From an uncultured Bacteroidales bacterium (GTDB lineage: Bacteria > Bacteroidota > Bacteroidia > Bacteroidales > Bacteroidaceae), in the NCBI GenBank assembly GCA_902779085.1, contig CACYZY010000001.1:248001-312000 (forward strand): 64,000 bases of DNA. Direction: 5' to 3'. Within the stretch, counting starts at the first letter, position 1. The number at the start of each line of letters is the position of its first letter. Under the pieces are notes generated by a model that was not told the origin of the DNA, did not search any database, and worked only from the letters and a program-made list of their open reading frames with translations. This document shows positions 24,394 through 30,577 of the stretch, one piece after another. The translations under genes were made by a program, and so were the position numbers.

Positions 24394-24410
24394 TTTTTAC
24401 GTTTTTCTTG

Positions 24411-24418
24411 CAAAGATA
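24411..24418 (-). promoter_or_regulatory. -7 box for nth
   Basis: Minus-strand TATCTTTG, an exact TAnnTTTG match 18 bases before the nth ATG. Confidence 0.5.
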
Positions 24419-24469
24419 CAACTTCCGGCTATAAATGATTACTTCAAAGGCAATATTTTCTTCAATTTG

Positions 24470-24501
24470 TTTGGCAAATAGGGAAAAAAGAAGTTACTTT
24501 G
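24470..24501 (+). promoter_or_regulatory. ilv operon promoter
   Basis: TTTG at 24470-24473, a 20-base spacer, and TTACTTTG at 24494-24501 (7 of 8 to TAnnTTTG). The predicted start is near 24508, about 19 bases before the leader-peptide ATG. Confidence 0.55.
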
Positions 24502-24526
24502 CAGTCGAAACAAAAATGGAATAGAT

Positions 24527-24604
24527 ATGTTGCAGATTTTTACAAGCGTCAGCCTATCAGTATTGGATATTATTCGCGTCGTGGTCGTGGAGCCAATGGC
24601 GTGA
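24527..24604 (+). CDS. ilv leader peptide (branched-chain amino acid sensor)
   Basis: A 25-codon ORF too short for ordinary gene calling: ATG 24527, TGA 24602-24604. The product starts MLQIF and holds six Val, three Ile and three Leu (12 of 25). Residues 15-21 form the run IIRVVVV, encoded at 24569-24589. This is the composition expected of an attenuation control peptide for the ilv genes that follow. The stop codon lies at the edge of the antiterminator arm (24603-24611), so a ribosome reaching the stop would cover that arm, while one stalled on the Ile/Val codons would leave it free. The peptide itself is probably not functional after synthesis. Confidence 0.85.
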   Translation: MLQIFTSVSLSVLDIIRVVVVEPMA

Positions 24605-24682
24605 GAAAGGCGGCTTGTTCTTTTTGCAAGTAGATTAAATATAACTTTTACAGCCTTTCTCAATTTAGGGAAGGGCTTTTTT
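24603..24682 (+). promoter_or_regulatory. Transcription attenuator of the ilv operon
   Basis: Two mutually exclusive structures share one arm. Antiterminator: GAGAAAGGC (24603-24611) pairs perfectly with GCCTTTCTC (24653-24661). Terminator: AGCCTTTCTC (24652-24661) pairs with GGGAAGGGCT (24668-24677), a 10-bp stem with two G-U pairs and a 6-base loop, followed by six T residues (24677-24682). The terminator ends 14 bases before the ilvD start. With the leader peptide this gives classical ribosome-mediated attenuation: shortage of charged Ile/Val/Leu tRNA leads to read-through. Confidence 0.82.
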
Positions 24683-24695
24683 AATAAAAAGAGAA

Positions 24696-26498
24696 ATGAA
24701 ACATCAGTTTAGAAGTTCGTTCAGCACGCAAGGCAGACGTATGGCAGGTGCCAGAGCCCTTTGGGTGGCTAATGGCATGAAAAAAGAGCAGTTGGGTAAG
24801 CCTATCATTGCCATTGTCAACTCTTTCACTCAGTTTGTACCAGGACATGTGCACTTGCATGAGGCTGGCCAATTGGTGAAGCAGGAGATTGAGAAATTAG
24901 GTTGTTTTGCTGCTGAGTTCAATACCATTGCCATTGATGATGGCATCGCTATGGGGCATGACGGCATGCTCTATTCATTGCCTTCAAGAGATATTATCGC
25001 CGACAGTGTAGAGTATATGGTGAATGCACACAAAGCTGATGCTATGGTGTGTATCAGCAACTGCGACAAGATTACTCCGGGTATGCTGATGGCAGCAATG
25101 AGACTGAACATCCCGGCCGTATTTGTTTCGGGTGGCCCTATGGAAGCTGGTAACTACCGTGGTGAACAAGTGGATTTAATAGACTTGATGGTACGTGGTG
25201 CCGATAAGAGCGTTAGCGATGCTGATTTGGCAGAGATTGAGCAAGTGGGTTGCCCTGGCTGTGGTTGTTGCTCGGGTATGTTTACTGCCAACTCGATGAA
25301 TTGTCTGAACGAGGCCATTGGTTTGGCTTTGCCAGGCAATGGCACTGTGTTGGCTACCCATGTTAACAGAAAACTGCTGATGAAACAGGCTGCCAAACTA
25401 ATTGTAGAGAATACCTATAAATATTATGAGGATGGTGATGAGAGTGTGTTGCCTCGCAGCATTGCTACCCGTCAGGCTTTCCTCAACGCCATGAGTTTGG
25501 ACATTGCAATGGGTGGATCAACAAACACGGTGCTTCATTTGTTGGCTGTTGCTCATGAAGCAGGAGCAGATTTCAAAATGGATGACATCGACATGCTGAG
25601 CCGTAGGGTGCCTTGCCTTTGCAAGGTGGCTCCTAACACCAACAAGTATCATGTGCAGGATGTAAACCGTGCAGGAGGTATCGTGGCTATTATGCAGCAG
25701 TTGGCGAAAGGTGGACTGATAGACACTTCTTTGAGGCGTGTGGATGGCATGACATTGGCGGAGGAAATCAGTAAATACACTATTGAAACTTCACAAGTAA
25801 GCGATGAGGCTAAAAATATCTATCTCAGTGCTCCAGCCAACCGATTCAGCAATGTGATGGGCTCACAAGAAACTTACTATAAGGAGTTTGATGCAGATCG
25901 TGTTAATGGTTGTATCCGTGATTTGGAACATGCCTATACTAAGGATGGTGGTTTGGCTGTATTGAAAGGTAATATTGCTCAAGATGGCTGTGTTATCAAG
26001 ACTGCAGGAGTGGATGAAAGTCTTTTCCACTTCAGTGGTCCTGCTCGTGTATTTGACTCACAGGATACGGCATGCGAAGGCATTCTCGATGAAAACCGTG
26101 TGAAAGCTGGTGATGTGGTGGTCATCACTCACGAGGGGCCTAAAGGCGGACCTGGCATGCAAGAGATGCTGTATCCTACCTCCTATATTAAGAGCCGTCA
26201 TTTGGGCAAGGCTTGTGCATTGATTACCGACGGGCGCTTCAGCGGTGGTACGTCTGGTCTGAGCATCGGCCATATCTCACCTGAGGCAGCGGCTGGTGGT
26301 AATATCGGCAAGATTAAGGATGGTGATATCATTGAGATTGATATTCCTAAACGTAGTATTAACGTCTTGTTGAGCGATGAGGAACTAGCAGCAAGGCCTA
26401 TGCAACCTTTGACTCGCGACCGAAATGTGCCAAAGAGTTTGCAGGCATATGCCTCTATGGTAAGCTCGGCAGATAAAGGTGCTGTGAGATTGATTTGA
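24696..26498 (+). CDS. ilvD: Dihydroxyacid dehydratase
   Basis: A 600-residue Fe-S enzyme that dehydrates dihydroxyisovalerate and dihydroxymethylvalerate to the keto acids of valine and isoleucine. Cluster and metal-site segments are visible: [10 protein letters not shown] (about 119-128) and [18 protein letters not shown] (about 186-203), plus the C-terminal [21 protein letters not shown] active-site loop (given in part: [10 protein letters not shown]). It resembles the longer E. coli-type IlvD. It is the first structural gene after the attenuator, and ilvB follows after 21 bases. Confidence 0.97.
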
Positions 26499-26519: not shown

Positions 26520-28208
26520 ATGATATCAGGTTCAGAAGCTTTGATGCGTGCTTTAGAGCACCAAGGTGTGAAGACAATTTTTGGCTATCCAGGAGGTAGC
26601 ATTATGCCTGTGTATGATGCCTTATATGACCATACAGATAAGTTGCATCACGTGCTGGTGAGACATGAGCAAGGAGCAGCCCATGCGGCTGAAGGATTTG
26701 CACGCGTGTCAGGCGAAGTGGGTGTATGCCTTGTGACTAGTGGCCCAGGTGCCACAAATACTGTTACAGGCATTGCCGATGCTATGATTGACAGTACCCC
26801 AATCGTGGTAATTGCCGGCCAGGTGGGTGTGAGCGCTTTGGGTACAGATGCTTTTCAGGAGGTTGATTGGGTAGGTTTAACACAGCCAATCTCCAAGTGG
26901 AGTTACATGATTCGCGATGCCAACGACATTGCCCAGGCAGTGGCACGGGCTTTCTATATAGCTAAGAGTGGTCGTCCTGGTCCTGTGGTACTCGATTTCC
27001 CCAAGAGTGCTCAAACCCAAATGATAGACTATCAACCTGCCGAAGCAAAATATATACGTAGCTATGATCCTGTACCCGACACTGATATGTTAGCGGTAGA
27101 GCAGGCTGCTGAGCTGATAAATAATGCCAAACGTCCATTTATGTTGGTAGGACAGGGAGTCGAATTGGGCAATGCTCATCAGGAACTGCTTGACTTCATT
27201 GAGAAGGCAGATATCCCATGTGGTACAACTATGTTGGGACTCTCAGCACTTCCATATAACCACCCTTTGAACAAGGGTATGCTGGGCATGCATGGCAATA
27301 TCGGACCTAATGTGAATACTAATAAATGTGATGTACTGATAGCTGTGGGTATGCGATTTAGTGACCGCGTAACAGGCTATCTGCCTAACTATGCAAAGCA
27401 AGCAAAGATTATCCATTTTGATATAGATCCAGCTGAAATAAATAAGAATGTAAAGGTAGATGTGGCTGTCTTAGGCGATTGCAAGAACACTTTGCGTGTA
27501 GTGGGTGAGAAGTTGAATCCTGCTAAACATGAAAAATGGTCGGATAGTTTCACTACCTATGAAAAACTGGAATATGATAAAGTTATATATAACGAACTGA
27601 ACCCTAAGACAAAGACGCTAAGTTATGGTGAAGTGGTGCATGCCGTTGCAGAAGCCACAAAGCATGAGGGTATCCTGGTAACTGATGTAGGTCAGAACCA
27701 GTTGACTTCAGCCCGCTATTTCCATCTGTTGAACAAACGTAGTATAGTAACATCAGGAGGTTTGGGTACCATGGGATTCGGCTTACCAGCAGCTATCGGC
27801 GCTACCTTTGGAGCTCCTGACAGAACAGTATGCCTTTTCGTTGGTGATGGTGGCATCCAGATGACTATTGAGGAGTTTGGCACTATCATGGAATATGGAT
27901 GTCCTGTAAAAGTGATTATCCTGAATAATCATTTTCTGGGCAATGTGCGTCAGTGGCAGGAATTGTTCTTCAATCGGCGTTACTCGTTTACGCACATGAT
28001 GAATCCTGACTATATGAAAATTGCTGAGGCTTACAATATCCCAGCCTTGCGGGTGATGGAACGTGAAGACTTGTCAGTAGCTGTCAACAAGATGTTGACC
28101 ACCGATGGTCCATTTATCTTGGAGGCAGTGGTTACTGAAGAAGAGAACGTGCTGCCGATGACACCTCCTGGAAGTGCCATTAGTGAAATAATGCTTGAAA
28201 CGGAATAA
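26520..28208 (+). CDS. ilvB: Acetolactate synthase, large subunit
   Basis: A 562-residue ThDP-dependent catalytic subunit of acetohydroxyacid synthase, the committed step of branched-chain amino acid synthesis. Catalytic Glu50 is in RHEQGAAHAAEGFAR, the FAD-binding middle domain carries VGMRFSDRVTGY, and the ThDP/Mg motif GDG...NN is GDGGIQMTIEEF to ILNNHFLGN. ilvN follows after 3 bases, matching the two-subunit enzyme. Confidence 0.97.
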   Translation: MISGSEALMRALEHQGVKTIFGYPGGSIMPVYDALYDHTDKLHHVLVRHEQGAAHAAEGFARVSGEVGVCLVTSGPGATNTVTGIADAMIDSTPIVVIAGQVGVSALGTDAFQEVDWVGLTQPISKWSYMIRDANDIAQAVARAFYIAKSGRPGPVVLDFPKSAQTQMIDYQPAEAKYIRSYDPVPDTDMLAVEQAAELINNAKRPFMLVGQGVELGNAHQELLDFIEKADIPCGTTMLGLSALPYNHPLNKGMLGMHGNIGPNVNTNKCDVLIAVGMRFSDRVTGYLPNYAKQAKIIHFDIDPAEINKNVKVDVAVLGDCKNTLRVVGEKLNPAKHEKWSDSFTTYEKLEYDKVIYNELNPKTKTLSYGEVVHAVAEATKHEGILVTDVGQNQLTSARYFHLLNKRSIVTSGGLGTMGFGLPAAIGATFGAPDRTVCLFVGDGGIQMTIEEFGTIMEYGCPVKVIILNNHFLGNVRQWQELFFNRRYSFTHMMNPDYMKIAEAYNIPALRVMEREDLSVAVNKMLTTDGPFILEAVVTEEENVLPMTPPGSAISEIMLETE

Positions 28209-28211
28209 GTT

Positions 28212-28763
28212 ATGGAACAAAAACTATATACGATTATCGTACATTCAGAGAATGTGGCAGGTGTACTGAACCAGGTGACAGCCGTTTTTACACGTAGGCA
28301 GATTAATATTGAGAGTCTGAACGTGTCCGCATCCTCTATCCCTGGTGTACATAAATACACTATCACAGCATTGACCGATCCTGATACGATGGAGAAGGTG
28401 GCGAAACAAATCAGTAAGAAGATTGATGTGGTACAAACGCAGTATTATACAGACGACGAGGTGTTCCAGCACGAGATTGCTTTGTATAAACTAAAGACGC
28501 ACATTTTAGAGGCCAATCGCGAAGTGGGTCGCGTGATTCGTAGGTTCAATGCCCGTATTGTGGAGGTAAATGCTACCTATTCAATTGTGGTTCATGATGG
28601 CATGAGTTCTGAACTGACTGCCATGAATGAGCAATTGATGCAACTAGGTTGCGTACTGCAGTTTGTGAGGACTGGTCGTGTTGTAGTTACTAAGAGCAGT
28701 TTTGAAAGAGTGGACGAGTACCTCGAGAAACGTGGTAAGAAATACGAACAGAGGGGAATATGA
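28212..28763 (+). CDS. ilvN: Acetolactate synthase, regulatory small subunit
   Basis: A 183-residue ACT-domain subunit that confers feedback control by valine. The N-terminal ACT domain covers YTIIVHSENVAGVLNQVTAVF and the INIESLNVSAS strand (about residues 6-45). A second, C-terminal ALS_ss domain follows from about residue 85. The four-base overlap with the downstream thioesterase gene (ATGA) indicates translational coupling. Confidence 0.95.
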   Translation: MEQKLYTIIVHSENVAGVLNQVTAVFTRRQINIESLNVSASSIPGVHKYTITALTDPDTMEKVAKQISKKIDVVQTQYYTDDEVFQHEIALYKLKTHILEANREVGRVIRRFNARIVEVNATYSIVVHDGMSSELTAMNEQLMQLGCVLQFVRTGRVVVTKSSFERVDEYLEKRGKKYEQRGI

Positions 28764-29512
28764 GCGAATTAGGTAAGATAGGTACTTATCAGTTTGTGGC
28801 CGAGCCGTTTCATGTGGATTATACAGGGCACCTGACCATCGGTGTACTGGGTAACCACCTGTTGAATGTGGCGGGTTTTCATTCTCATGATAGAGGTTTT
28901 GGCATCGACCGACTAAACAAGGAGCATTATACTTGGGTTCTTTCAAGATTGGCGCTGGAGATGCTTTCCGATCTGCCTTACCAGTATGAACCTTTTACCA
29001 TCGAAACATGGGTAGAAAATGTGTATCGCTTGTTTACTGACCGTAATTTTGCCGTGCTCGACAAAGACGCAAAACCAGTGGCATATGCTCGTTCGGTTTG
29101 GGCGATGATTGATACAGAAACTCGCAAACCTGTTGACTTGATGGCGATACATGATGGTGATATTGCTGGATATATCTGTGACAGAGAATGTCCTATTGAT
29201 AAGCCGTCACGTATCAAGGTGAACAATCAGGAACCTGCCGAGGTATTACCAGTGCGTTATAGCGATATGGACATCAATGGTCATGTGAACAGCATCCGTT
29301 ATATAGAACATATCCTCGACCTGTTTCCTGTTGATGCTTTTAAGGTAAAGAAAGTACACAGGTTTGAGATGGCATACGTTGCGGAGACGATGGCTACAGA
29401 CAGCATGGCTTTTTATGTTGACAAGTTGAACGATGACAATTTTGATATTGAAGTGAAAAAGAACCAGGCCGATGTGGTCTGCCGTTCAAAAGTGATATTT
29501 GAAAATAGGTAA
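28760..29512 (+). CDS. Acyl-ACP thioesterase (double hotdog)
   Basis: A 250-residue cytoplasmic protein of the FatA/FatB-like acyl-ACP thioesterase family (PF01643), which releases fatty acids from acyl carrier protein. Two hotdog folds are apparent. The second carries the catalytic Asn/His segment DMDINGHVNSIRY (about residues 170-182), and an N-terminal IDRLNKEHYTWVLSRLALEM corresponds to the family's substrate-facing helix. Its position between ilvN and ilvC is unusual for a fatty-acid enzyme. One inference is a link with branched-chain acyl groups made from the same keto acids. Confidence 0.88.
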   Translation: MSELGKIGTYQFVAEPFHVDYTGHLTIGVLGNHLLNVAGFHSHDRGFGIDRLNKEHYTWVLSRLALEMLSDLPYQYEPFTIETWVENVYRLFTDRNFAVLDKDAKPVAYARSVWAMIDTETRKPVDLMAIHDGDIAGYICDRECPIDKPSRIKVNNQEPAEVLPVRYSDMDINGHVNSIRYIEHILDLFPVDAFKVKKVHRFEMAYVAETMATDSMAFYVDKLNDDNFDIEVKKNQADVVCRSKVIFENR

Positions 29513-29533: not shown

Positions 29534-30577
29534 ATGGCAAAAATGAATTTTGGTGGTGTCATCGAGGAAGTGATGACACGTGAAGAGTTTCCTTTGGAGA
29601 AGGCTCGTGAGGTATTGAAAGATGAAACTATTGCTGTTATTGGCTATGGCGTTCAGGGTCCTGGTCAGGCATGCAACCTGCGTGACAATGGCTTTAACGT
29701 CATCGTTGGTCAGCGTCAGGGCAAGACTTTTGAGAAGGCTATTGCTGATGGTTGGGTACCAGGTAAGACGCTCTTCTCTATCGAGGAGGCTGCGACTAAA
29801 GGTACTATCGTAATGTGTTTGCTCTCTGATGCAGCTGTTATGTCTGTTTGGCCTACACTGAAGAAGTGCTTGCAGCCAGGTAACGCCCTCTATTTCTCTC
29901 ATGGTTTCGCAATTACTTGGAACGACCGCACAGGTTGTGTCCCTCAGAAAGATATCGATGTGATCATGGTGGCTCCTAAGGGTTCAGGTACTTCACTGCG
30001 TACCATGTTCCTTGAAGGTCGTGGTTTGAACTCATCATACGCAGTATATCAGGATGCTACAGGAAAGGCACTTGACCGTACACTGGCATTAGGTATCGGT
30101 ATCGGTTCCGGCTATCTGTTTGAGACAACCTTCCAGCGCGAAGCTACTTCTGACCTTACTGGTGAGCGTGGCTCACTGATGGGTGCTATCCAGGGCTTGC
30201 TGCTGGCCCAGTATGAAGTGTTGCGTGAGAACGGTCACTCTCCTTCAGAGGCTTTCAACGAGACCGTTGAGGAACTGACTCAATCATTGATGCCTTTGTT
30301 TGCTCAGAAGGGTATGGACTGGATGTATGCCAACTGCTCAACTACCGCACAGCGTGGCGCTTTGGACTGGATGGGCCCGTTCCACGATGCTATCAAACCA
30401 GTAGTTGAGAAGTTGTATGCTAGTGTGAAATGTGGTAACGAGGCTCAGATCTCAATCGATGCCAACTCAAAACCAGACTACCGTGTAGGTCTCGAGAAGG
30501 AGCTTGCTGCATTGCACGATTCAGAGATGTGGCGTACAGCTGAGGTGGTTCGTCAGCTTCGTCCTGAGAACAATTAA
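29534..30577 (+). CDS. ilvC: Ketol-acid reductoisomerase (class I)
   Basis: A 347-residue enzyme that isomerises and reduces acetolactate and acetohydroxybutyrate. The Rossmann motif is VIGYGVQGPGQACNLRDNG (about residues 36-54), and the cofactor loop reads VGQRQGKTFEKA. A catalytic metal/substrate helix region is found in DLTGERGSLMGAIQG and ETVEELTQSLMPLFAQKGMD. Length fits the short class I form. It is the last ilv gene, and a strong terminator follows 24 bases later. No leu genes are present in the window. Confidence 0.95.
   Translation: MAKMNFGGVIEEVMTREEFPLEKAREVLKDETIAVIGYGVQGPGQACNLRDNGFNVIVGQRQGKTFEKAIADGWVPGKTLFSIEEAATKGTIVMCLLSDAAVMSVWPTLKKCLQPGNALYFSHGFAITWNDRTGCVPQKDIDVIMVAPKGSGTSLRTMFLEGRGLNSSYAVYQDATGKALDRTLALGIGIGSGYLFETTFQREATSDLTGERGSLMGAIQGLLLAQYEVLRENGHSPSEAFNETVEELTQSLMPLFAQKGMDWMYANCSTTAQRGALDWMGPFHDAIKPVVEKLYASVKCGNEAQISIDANSKPDYRVGLEKELAALHDSEMWRTAEVVRQLRPENN

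What the first reader, a model, noticed from the sequence alone, without database searches (positions are those of the whole stretch)
24470..24695. Complete leader-peptide attenuator in front of ilvDBNC
Seen directly: a 25-codon ORF (24527-24604) rich in Ile/Val/Leu with an IIRVVVV run, an antiterminator pairing GAGAAAGGC (24603-24611) with GCCTTTCTC (24653-24661), and a mutually exclusive terminator (24652-24682) ending 14 bases before ilvD. Ribosome position on the leader would decide which stem forms. Such control is classic in enteric bacteria; I recall predictions in Bacteroidetes but no detailed characterisation. The use of both valine and isoleucine codons in one run suggests sensing of several charged tRNAs.
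Basis: partly seen in the sequence, partly recalled or inferred. Interest (0 to 1): 0.82.

Follow-up and report, generated by a model that had tools for sequence, protein, structure and literature searches.

The report
Valine/isoleucine attenuator before Bacteroidales ilvD
A short coding stretch rich in valine and isoleucine codons sits before the branched-chain amino-acid operon of a gut-type bacterium and very probably lets a stalled ribosome switch transcription of the operon on when those amino acids run short, a classic control device that looks widespread in this little-studied phylum.

Summary
The window (unnamed Bacteroidales genome; IlvD N-terminus up to 94% identical to Bacteroides) holds leader ORF 24527-24604 (MLQIFTSVSLSVLDIIRVVVVEPMA), a perfect 10-bp antiterminator (24602-24611 x 24653-24662) and an overlapping intrinsic terminator (24652-24682) before ilvD-ilvB-ilvN-thioesterase-ilvC. 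A strict ORF + terminator + antiterminator test is passed by 25 of 79 ilvD relatives chosen without reference to the leader, and by 0 of 1600 shuffles. In 63 ilvD leaders the antiterminator starts a median 11 nt after the last branched-chain run (MAD 1), where a stalled ribosome's front edge should end. I add a probable third stem (1:2, formed by the Val codons), codon choice unlike the structural genes (GTC 44% vs 14%, CTA 23% vs 2%), and the same architecture before leuA and hisG in this genome. Rfam has no matching family; none of 10 loci titled Prevotella passes. Leader-peptide attenuation is classic, and 'strong clues' for it were already printed for a flavobacterium, so this is a new member of a known kind, not a new mechanism. 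Ribosome dependence is inferred; no expression data were seen.

The parts
24470..24501 (+). putative promoter: -33 TTTG (24470-24473) and -7 TTACTTTG (24494-24501), 20 nt apart
   Evidence: read from sequence; imperfect match to the TAnnTTTG -7 box named in PMC9723704 (the -33 box is recalled); the exact -7 motif lies upstream of 55 of 63 ilvD leader ATGs
24527..24604 (+). leader peptide ORF MLQIFTSVSLSVLDIIRVVVVEPMA*
   Evidence: translation; conserved in relatives
24569..24589 (+). control codons Ile-Ile-Arg-Val-Val-Val-Val (ATT ATT CGC GTC GTG GTC GTG)
   Evidence: spacing to antiterminator conserved
24574..24604 (+). probable 1:2 stem: 24574-24585 (control codons) with 24592-24594 and 24596-24604 (post-run codons and stop)
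   Evidence: fold -14.9 kcal/mol; pair counts on relatives and synonymous recoding; RNAalifold does not call it
24602..24611 (+). antiterminator 5' arm (segment 2), overlapping the stop codon
24653..24662 (+). antiterminator 3' arm, shared with the terminator 5' arm (segment 3)
24652..24682 (+). intrinsic terminator: 10-bp stem (3:4) and T run
24696..26498 (+). ilvD, dihydroxy-acid dehydratase
   Evidence: Pfam and NCBIfam
26520..28208 (+). ilvB, acetolactate synthase large subunit
28212..28763 (+). ilvN-type regulatory subunit (ACT + ALS_ss_C)
28760..29512 (+). acyl-ACP thioesterase gene inside the operon
29534..30577 (+). ilvC, ketol-acid reductoisomerase

Best explanation
It is a ribosome-mediated transcription attenuator controlling ilvD-ilvB-ilvN-(thioesterase)-ilvC. 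Transcription starts near 24506 (inferred from the motif) and a ribosome enters the leader ORF. With enough Ile-tRNA and Val-tRNA it runs to the stop codon at 24602-24604 and covers the antiterminator 5' arm (24602-24611), so segment 3 (24653-24662) pairs with segment 4 and RNA polymerase stops at 24677-24682. When Ile- or Val-tRNA is short the ribosome stalls on ATT-ATT or on the Val run; it then sits on segment 1 (24574-24585), which frees segment 2, and its front edge ends just before 24602, so 2:3 forms first and blocks the terminator. With no ribosome, 1:2 forms and termination is the default. Shown here by computation: anatomy, conservation, spacing, base pairing, promoter motif in relatives. 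Inferred: ribosome dependence, starvation response, start site. A prediction from the geometry: Ile and Val starvation should relieve termination; Leu starvation, with stalling at codon 13 (24563), should not, because segment 1 stays free.
For: Conserved leader with I/V run, antiterminator and terminator: strict joint test passed by 26 of 80 testable ilvD upstream regions including the window (25 of 79 relatives), 0 of 1600 shuffles. Antiterminator scores at p<=0.05 in 60 of 63 ilvD and 14 of 15 leuA leaders. Control-run-to-antiterminator spacing median 11 nt, 56 of 63 within 8-15 (ilvD), and median 12, 12 of 15 (leuA); median 13 in 16 his leaders, by a slightly different definition. Stop-to-antiterminator spacing differs between operons (medians -4 and -21). 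Run identity fits the operon: I/V before ilvD, Ile then Leu before leuA, His before hisG. Terminator covariation. Promoter motif in 55 of 63. With the 5' part masked and segment 4 not completed the antiterminator folds; with the stop region masked the terminator folds.
Against: No expression, start-site or termination data for this genome were available. With the terminator fully transcribed, the terminator fold is slightly more stable than the antiterminator even when the arm is free (-20.9 vs -18.8), so the switch must be kinetic. Antiterminator covariation within ilvD leaders is modest (4 of 12 pairs with double changes, reached by 105/500 shuffles; covariation score 8/500). RNAalifold finds no consensus structure for the 1:2 region, its doubly changed pairs (2 of 12) are reached by 271/500 shuffles, and the recoding effect is individually significant in only 15 of 63 loci. 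54 of 79 testable relatives fail the strict test; some of these carry a leader that the cut-offs miss, others, including all 10 titled Prevotella, show none. The model R1 was built from 22 of these sequences, so conservation seen through it is partly circular; searches are not selected by it.
Confidence: 0.92

Rival explanations
1. The terminator is controlled by a ligand or an RNA-binding protein (riboswitch-like), and the ORF is incidental.
For: The alternative stems alone would allow it; the control-codon stretch is conserved at nucleotide level (CGTCGTGGT).
Against: Run residues match the operon product before ilvD, leuA and hisG; spacing from run to antiterminator is nearly constant and ribosome-sized; no Rfam family matches the region even at permissive E-values, apart from two irrelevant snoRNA hits. 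The nucleotide conservation can be accounted for by the 1:2 stem and codon choice.
Confidence: 0.04
2. The hairpin before ilvD acts on translation initiation (translational attenuation) rather than on transcription.
For: It ends 13 nt before the ilvD start.
Against: Stem followed by a T run is the intrinsic-terminator form in the window and in relatives; in L068 and L076 it lies roughly 135-200 nt upstream of ilvD, too far to hide a start site.
Confidence: 0.03
3. The leader encodes a small protein acting in trans, or serves translational reinitiation at ilvD.
For: The ORF is conserved; leader-gene reinitiation has been proposed in general (PMC4833913, abstract and passages).
Against: Outside the I/V run the peptide varies in sequence and length; its stop is about 90 nt from ilvD, not at the 11-14 nt peak that paper reports for Bacteroidetes.
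Confidence: 0.01

Closest known systems
E. coli/Salmonella ilvGMEDA and ilvBN leader-peptide attenuators (details recalled; listed as known cases in PMC1183508, passages)
   Same: Short ORF with branched-chain codons, alternative stems, terminator before the first structural gene.
   Different: Other gene order (ilvDBN-thioesterase-C) and a Bacteroidota promoter motif; no Rfam match, and no direct alignment with the enteric leaders was made.
Salmonella leu attenuator with CUA control codons (PMC1183508, passages)
   Same: Rare CUA is enriched in leaders: 31% of Leu codons in 15 leuA leaders against 6% in the gene.
   Different: Here Ile codons precede the Leu codons in the run, in 13 of 15 leuA peptides by my reading.
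[quoted passage not shown] PMC9723704, passages)
   Same: Same phylum, same proposed mechanism, with mapped start sites.
   Different: Another class; the passage names no gene, stem or codon; its supplement was not read.
Corynebacterium ilvBNC leader / ilvB-II motif (PMC10272879 and PMC11857589: search listing and start of abstract only)
   Same: Control of an ilv operon by a leader ORF and hairpins.
   Different: Actinobacteria; no alignment made.

Membership tests
Ribosome-mediated (leader-peptide) transcription attenuator | Short ORF before the operon with a run of codons for the amino acid(s) made by the operon | tested here: met
Ribosome-mediated (leader-peptide) transcription attenuator | Intrinsic terminator between leader ORF and first gene | tested here: met
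Ribosome-mediated (leader-peptide) transcription attenuator | Mutually exclusive antiterminator sharing the terminator's 5' arm | tested here: met
Ribosome-mediated (leader-peptide) transcription attenuator | Geometry: arm free when the ribosome sits on the control codons, covered when it is at or past the stop | tested here: met
   (distances only; footprint size is recalled)
Ribosome-mediated (leader-peptide) transcription attenuator | 1:2 stem giving termination without translation | tested here: inconclusive
   for: (cells paired); against: and the double-change count
Ribosome-mediated (leader-peptide) transcription attenuator | Promoter upstream of the leader ORF | tested here: met
   motif only, 55 of 63 relatives; the window's own -7 box is imperfect
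Ribosome-mediated (leader-peptide) transcription attenuator | Read-through rises when the cognate charged tRNA falls, dependent on translation | not testable with these tools
   no expression data
T-box leader | Match to an Rfam T-box family | tested here: not met
   cmscan of the window gives one hit, a tRNA; permissive scan of 24400-24800 gives two irrelevant snoRNA hits
Rfam amino-acid leader families (names recalled) | Score above gathering threshold | tested here: not met

The most novel reading that the evidence does not exclude
Bacteroidales, which by recollection lack T-boxes and rarely use Shine-Dalgarno initiation, use a uniform and so far uncurated set of ribosome-stalling attenuators as main sensors for branched-chain amino acids and histidine. 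In them the control codons do double duty: they set which tRNA is sensed, and as RNA they form the 1:2 stem that makes termination the default. Position along the run sorts the signals (Ile and Val sensed by ilv, Leu ignored; Ile and Leu by leuA), and codons poorly served by the tRNA set (GTC, with no tRNA-Val(GAC) found in this incomplete assembly) are preferred.
Probability: 0.45. Interest if true: 0.6.

Novelty: new member of a known kind. Interest (0 to 1): 0.4.

Why it matters
It gives gut-type Bacteroidales a concrete, testable switch for valine/isoleucine supply, with exact bases to mutate, and shows the same architecture before leuA and hisG in one genome. It makes coupling between ribosome and RNA polymerase testable in a phylum where it is little studied, and supplies aligned material for families that Rfam lacks. 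The mechanism itself is textbook, which limits surprise.

Tried and rejected
A hairpin inside the antiterminator loop (24613-24618 x 24626-24631 in the window) looked conserved by eye; across 63 leaders it is no better than shuffles (mean z -0.29, 13 of 63 below -1), so it is not claimed. RNAalifold on the 1:2 region predicts nothing, so 1:2 rests on named-pair counts and the recoding test. The codon-position test of coding evolution is weak: mean diversity 0.32, 0.13, 0.35 at positions 1, 2, 3 in 27 sequences. My run-end definition was crude; one search replaces it. In one search I read minus-strand hits in the wrong orientation; one search repeats them turned round. Of the 26 loci L132-L157, 17 have a fitting leader before an amino-acid gene and 9 look like ordinary terminators, by my reading. 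Among the 17, the simple helix finder gave no significant antiterminator for L134, L135, L138, L139, L141, L149 and L152. In the own genome no leader was seen by eye directly before thrA or before the one class-IV aminotransferase hit; trpE lies right behind another ORF and the start of that operon was not examined. Left out of the 63-leader counts: near-duplicates L083, L088, L089, L093 and L100; L099 (the window itself); L041 (terminator without leader); L044 and L048 (leader visible, missed by the model or the terminator finder); L071 (E 0.011). Alignment A3 still holds six partial reverse-strand matches, which have almost no letters in the antiterminator 5' arm. Alignment A4 holds 38 leaders that I picked because they align without large gaps. 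Loci are related by descent, so p-values over loci overstate independence. Papers: ten searches showed me no detailed account of ilv attenuation in Bacteroidota in the held library; Lopatovskaya et al. 2010, seen only as a reference in PMC4833913, is not held and may include Bacteroidetes.

Full report
What is there. Upstream of ilvD lie, in order, a Bacteroidota-type promoter candidate (TTTG 24470-24473, TTACTTTG 24494-24501), the ORF 24527-24604 (MLQIFTSVSLSVLDIIRVVVVEPMA*), and alternative stems. The antiterminator is 24602-24611 with 24653-24662, a perfect 10 bp; the terminator is 24652-24661 with 24668-24677 and a T run to 24682. The operon reads ilvD, ilvB, ilvN, acyl-ACP thioesterase, ilvC; the gene upstream is divergent.

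Chance. An ATG ORF with six Ile/Val in seven codons occurs in 0 of 2000 shuffles of the region and once in the whole window, here. A joint test (ATG ORF with at least 5 I/L/V in 6 codons, strong terminator, antiterminator helix starting up to 30 nt after the run) was applied to the upstream regions of the window and of the 80 relatives, which had been picked by the IlvD N-terminus alone; one relative was too short. It passes in 26 of 80, window included, against 0 of 1600 shuffled regions. The 54 that fail include loci with a visible leader missed by the cut-offs (for example L022, L035, L044, L048, L064, L068, L071, L076) and loci without any that I could see. None of the 10 records titled Prevotella passes and 3 of 11 titled Prevotellaceae do.

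Relatives. A covariance model of the leader (22 sequences, terminator pairs only) matches 71 of 151 family genomes in 20 of 29 genera at E<=0.001 (not all these matches were inspected) and 41 of 394 genomes drawn from the phylum. Of the 26 newly fetched loci of that search, L132-L157, 17 show a fitting leader by my reading. Downstream genes were checked with Pfam or NCBIfam for L112, L113, L133-L136, L138, L141, L142, L147, L149 and L154: leuA, ilvD, ilvE, the ALS small subunit, an amino-acid kinase with ACT domains (aspartate kinase type), trpE and hisG; the rest are named from their translated starts only. The other 9 look like ordinary terminators, so weak model matches are not evidence on their own.

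Second and third copies in this genome. A weaker hit (G000:C14:99060-99175, minus strand) lies before leuA: MIFNNTYILLCGIIILLAGVSGSEICA, with its own antiterminator (-23.0) and terminator (-16.9). hisG, found by its protein family and not by the model, is preceded by MNYTGSHHHHHHPSE* with antiterminator (-20.9) and terminator (-17.8). A HisG search of 31 family genomes gave 28 loci: 16 of 28 have a leader with at least 4 His in 7 codons plus a terminator, and 13 of these 16 have an antiterminator at p<=0.05; four of the 12 others have leaders with three His in seven codons. The his antiterminator (TCGGTAGGC type) and the ilv one (GAGAAAGG type) differ in sequence but share the architecture.

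Geometry. From the end of the last branched-chain run to the start of the antiterminator 5' arm the median is 11 nt in 63 ilvD leaders (MAD 1; 56 within 8-15) and 12 in 15 leuA leaders (12 within 8-15), while the arm's position relative to the stop codon differs between the two sets (medians -4 and -21). In some ilvD leaders (L009, L010, L018, L019) the ORF does not stop at the arm but reads through it. In 16 his leaders the run-to-arm median is 13 (range 8-18). This is what a ribosome stalled on the run would need if its front edge lies about 12 nt beyond the first base of the A-site codon (recalled value).

Stems. On 68 distinct aligned rows the terminator pairs in 95.0% of cells, with double changes in 7 of 12 pairs (0/500 shuffles). 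The antiterminator pairs in 87.9% of cells against 42-60% when slid by 1-3 columns, but covariation is modest (8/500 shuffles reach the covariation score, 105/500 the number of doubly changed pairs), perhaps because segment 3 serves two helices. A 1:2 stem formed by the Arg-Val codons and the post-run codons up to the stop folds at -14.9 kcal/mol in the window and pairs in 87.3% of cells of 38 chosen leaders, window included, against 36-49% when slid; its covariation score is reached by 7/500 shuffles but its two doubly changed pairs by 271/500, and RNAalifold predicts no consensus. Random synonymous recoding of the leader lowers the predicted upstream pairing of the antiterminator arm from 0.66 to 0.49 (54 of 63 loci, Wilcoxon p 9e-10; individually p<0.05 in 15 of 63; leuA p 0.055). 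Codon choice thus seems to serve RNA structure as well as peptide.

Codons. In 63 ilvD leaders Val is GTC 44% (14% in the following gene) and GTG 42% (41%), Leu is CTA 23% (2%), Ile is ATT 79% (43%); GTC+GTG exceeds the gene in 57 of 63 loci (p 4e-11). In 15 leuA leaders CTA is 31% against 6%. Loci are related, so p-values are optimistic. All 47 tRNA matches of the own genome were typed by ARAGORN: Val has TAC twice and CAC once and GAC was not found; Ile and Ala are also missing, so the assembly is incomplete there. A partial look at a one-contig genome of the genus shows Val-TAC twice. Bias towards CUA and towards starvation-sensitive codons in attenuators is known (PMC1183508, passages). 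For GTC I cannot separate that cause from the 1:2 stem.

Mechanism. Three folding states computed for the window fit the classic scheme: full leader, 1:2-like pairing plus terminator; ribosome on the last Val codon and segment 4 not completed, antiterminator (-18.8); ribosome at the stop, terminator. Once segment 4 exists the terminator is slightly favoured even with the arm free (-20.9), so order of synthesis matters. By geometry a ribosome stalled on Ile15/Ile16 or Val18-21 covers segment 1 wholly or mostly and leaves the antiterminator arm free, whereas one stalled on Leu13 leaves segment 1 free; hence the prediction that Ile and Val, not Leu, are sensed here. In leuA leaders the run goes from Ile to Leu (13 of 15 by my reading).

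Known or new. Leader-peptide attenuation is classic. For Bacteroidota I saw one passage reporting 'strong clues' for it in a flavobacterium (PMC9723704) and one noting sORFs reminiscent of leader peptides in B. thetaiotaomicron (PMC7366714, passages). Ten paper searches showed me no detailed account for ilv, leu or his in Bacteroidales in the held library, which lacks most subscription journals, including Lopatovskaya et al. 2010. Rfam has no match. I file it as a new member of a known kind.

Noticed in passing
L112 (G000:C14:99060-99175, minus strand): Second attenuator of the same genome, before leuA, with an Ile-Leu run and a different antiterminator sequence.
   Followed up: yes
L208 (G000:C14:17500-18700, reverse complement, leader at about position 799): His leader MNYTGSHHHHHHPSE* with antiterminator and terminator before hisG; 16 of 28 family hisG loci have such a leader plus terminator.
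   Followed up: yes
window 28760-29512: Acyl-ACP thioesterase gene inside the ilv operon between ilvN and ilvC (Pfam); no NCBIfam match at E<=0.001.
   Followed up: no
window 24516-24524: Two-codon mini-ORF (ATG GAA TAG) ends 2 nt before the leader ATG; it might affect entry to the leader.
   Followed up: no
L041 (Tannerella sp. MAG): Keeps the terminator hairpin before ilvD, but a promoter-like TATCTTTG sits just upstream and no leader was found; decayed attenuator or assembly fault.
   Followed up: partly
L021, L027, L029, L033, L042, L055, L056, L062, L067, L069: All 10 records titled Prevotella fail the attenuator test before ilvD; lineage loss or other control.
   Followed up: partly
L048: Record titled Pseudoflavonifractor carries a Bacteroidales-like ilvD (85% identity to the window's N-terminus) with a Val-run leader (MLTTSVVVVSVIA): probably a mis-binned contig.
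   Followed up: no
L009, L010, L018, L019, L085, L098, L101: One base fewer before the antiterminator arm shifts its frame; the leader ORF reads through the arm and ends about 20 nt later, while run-to-arm spacing is roughly kept.
   Followed up: partly
L135, L149, L152: Leaders with Trp codons (L135 also Tyr) before trpE-type genes in other Bacteroidota; terminator present, but no significant antiterminator found by the simple helix finder.
   Followed up: partly
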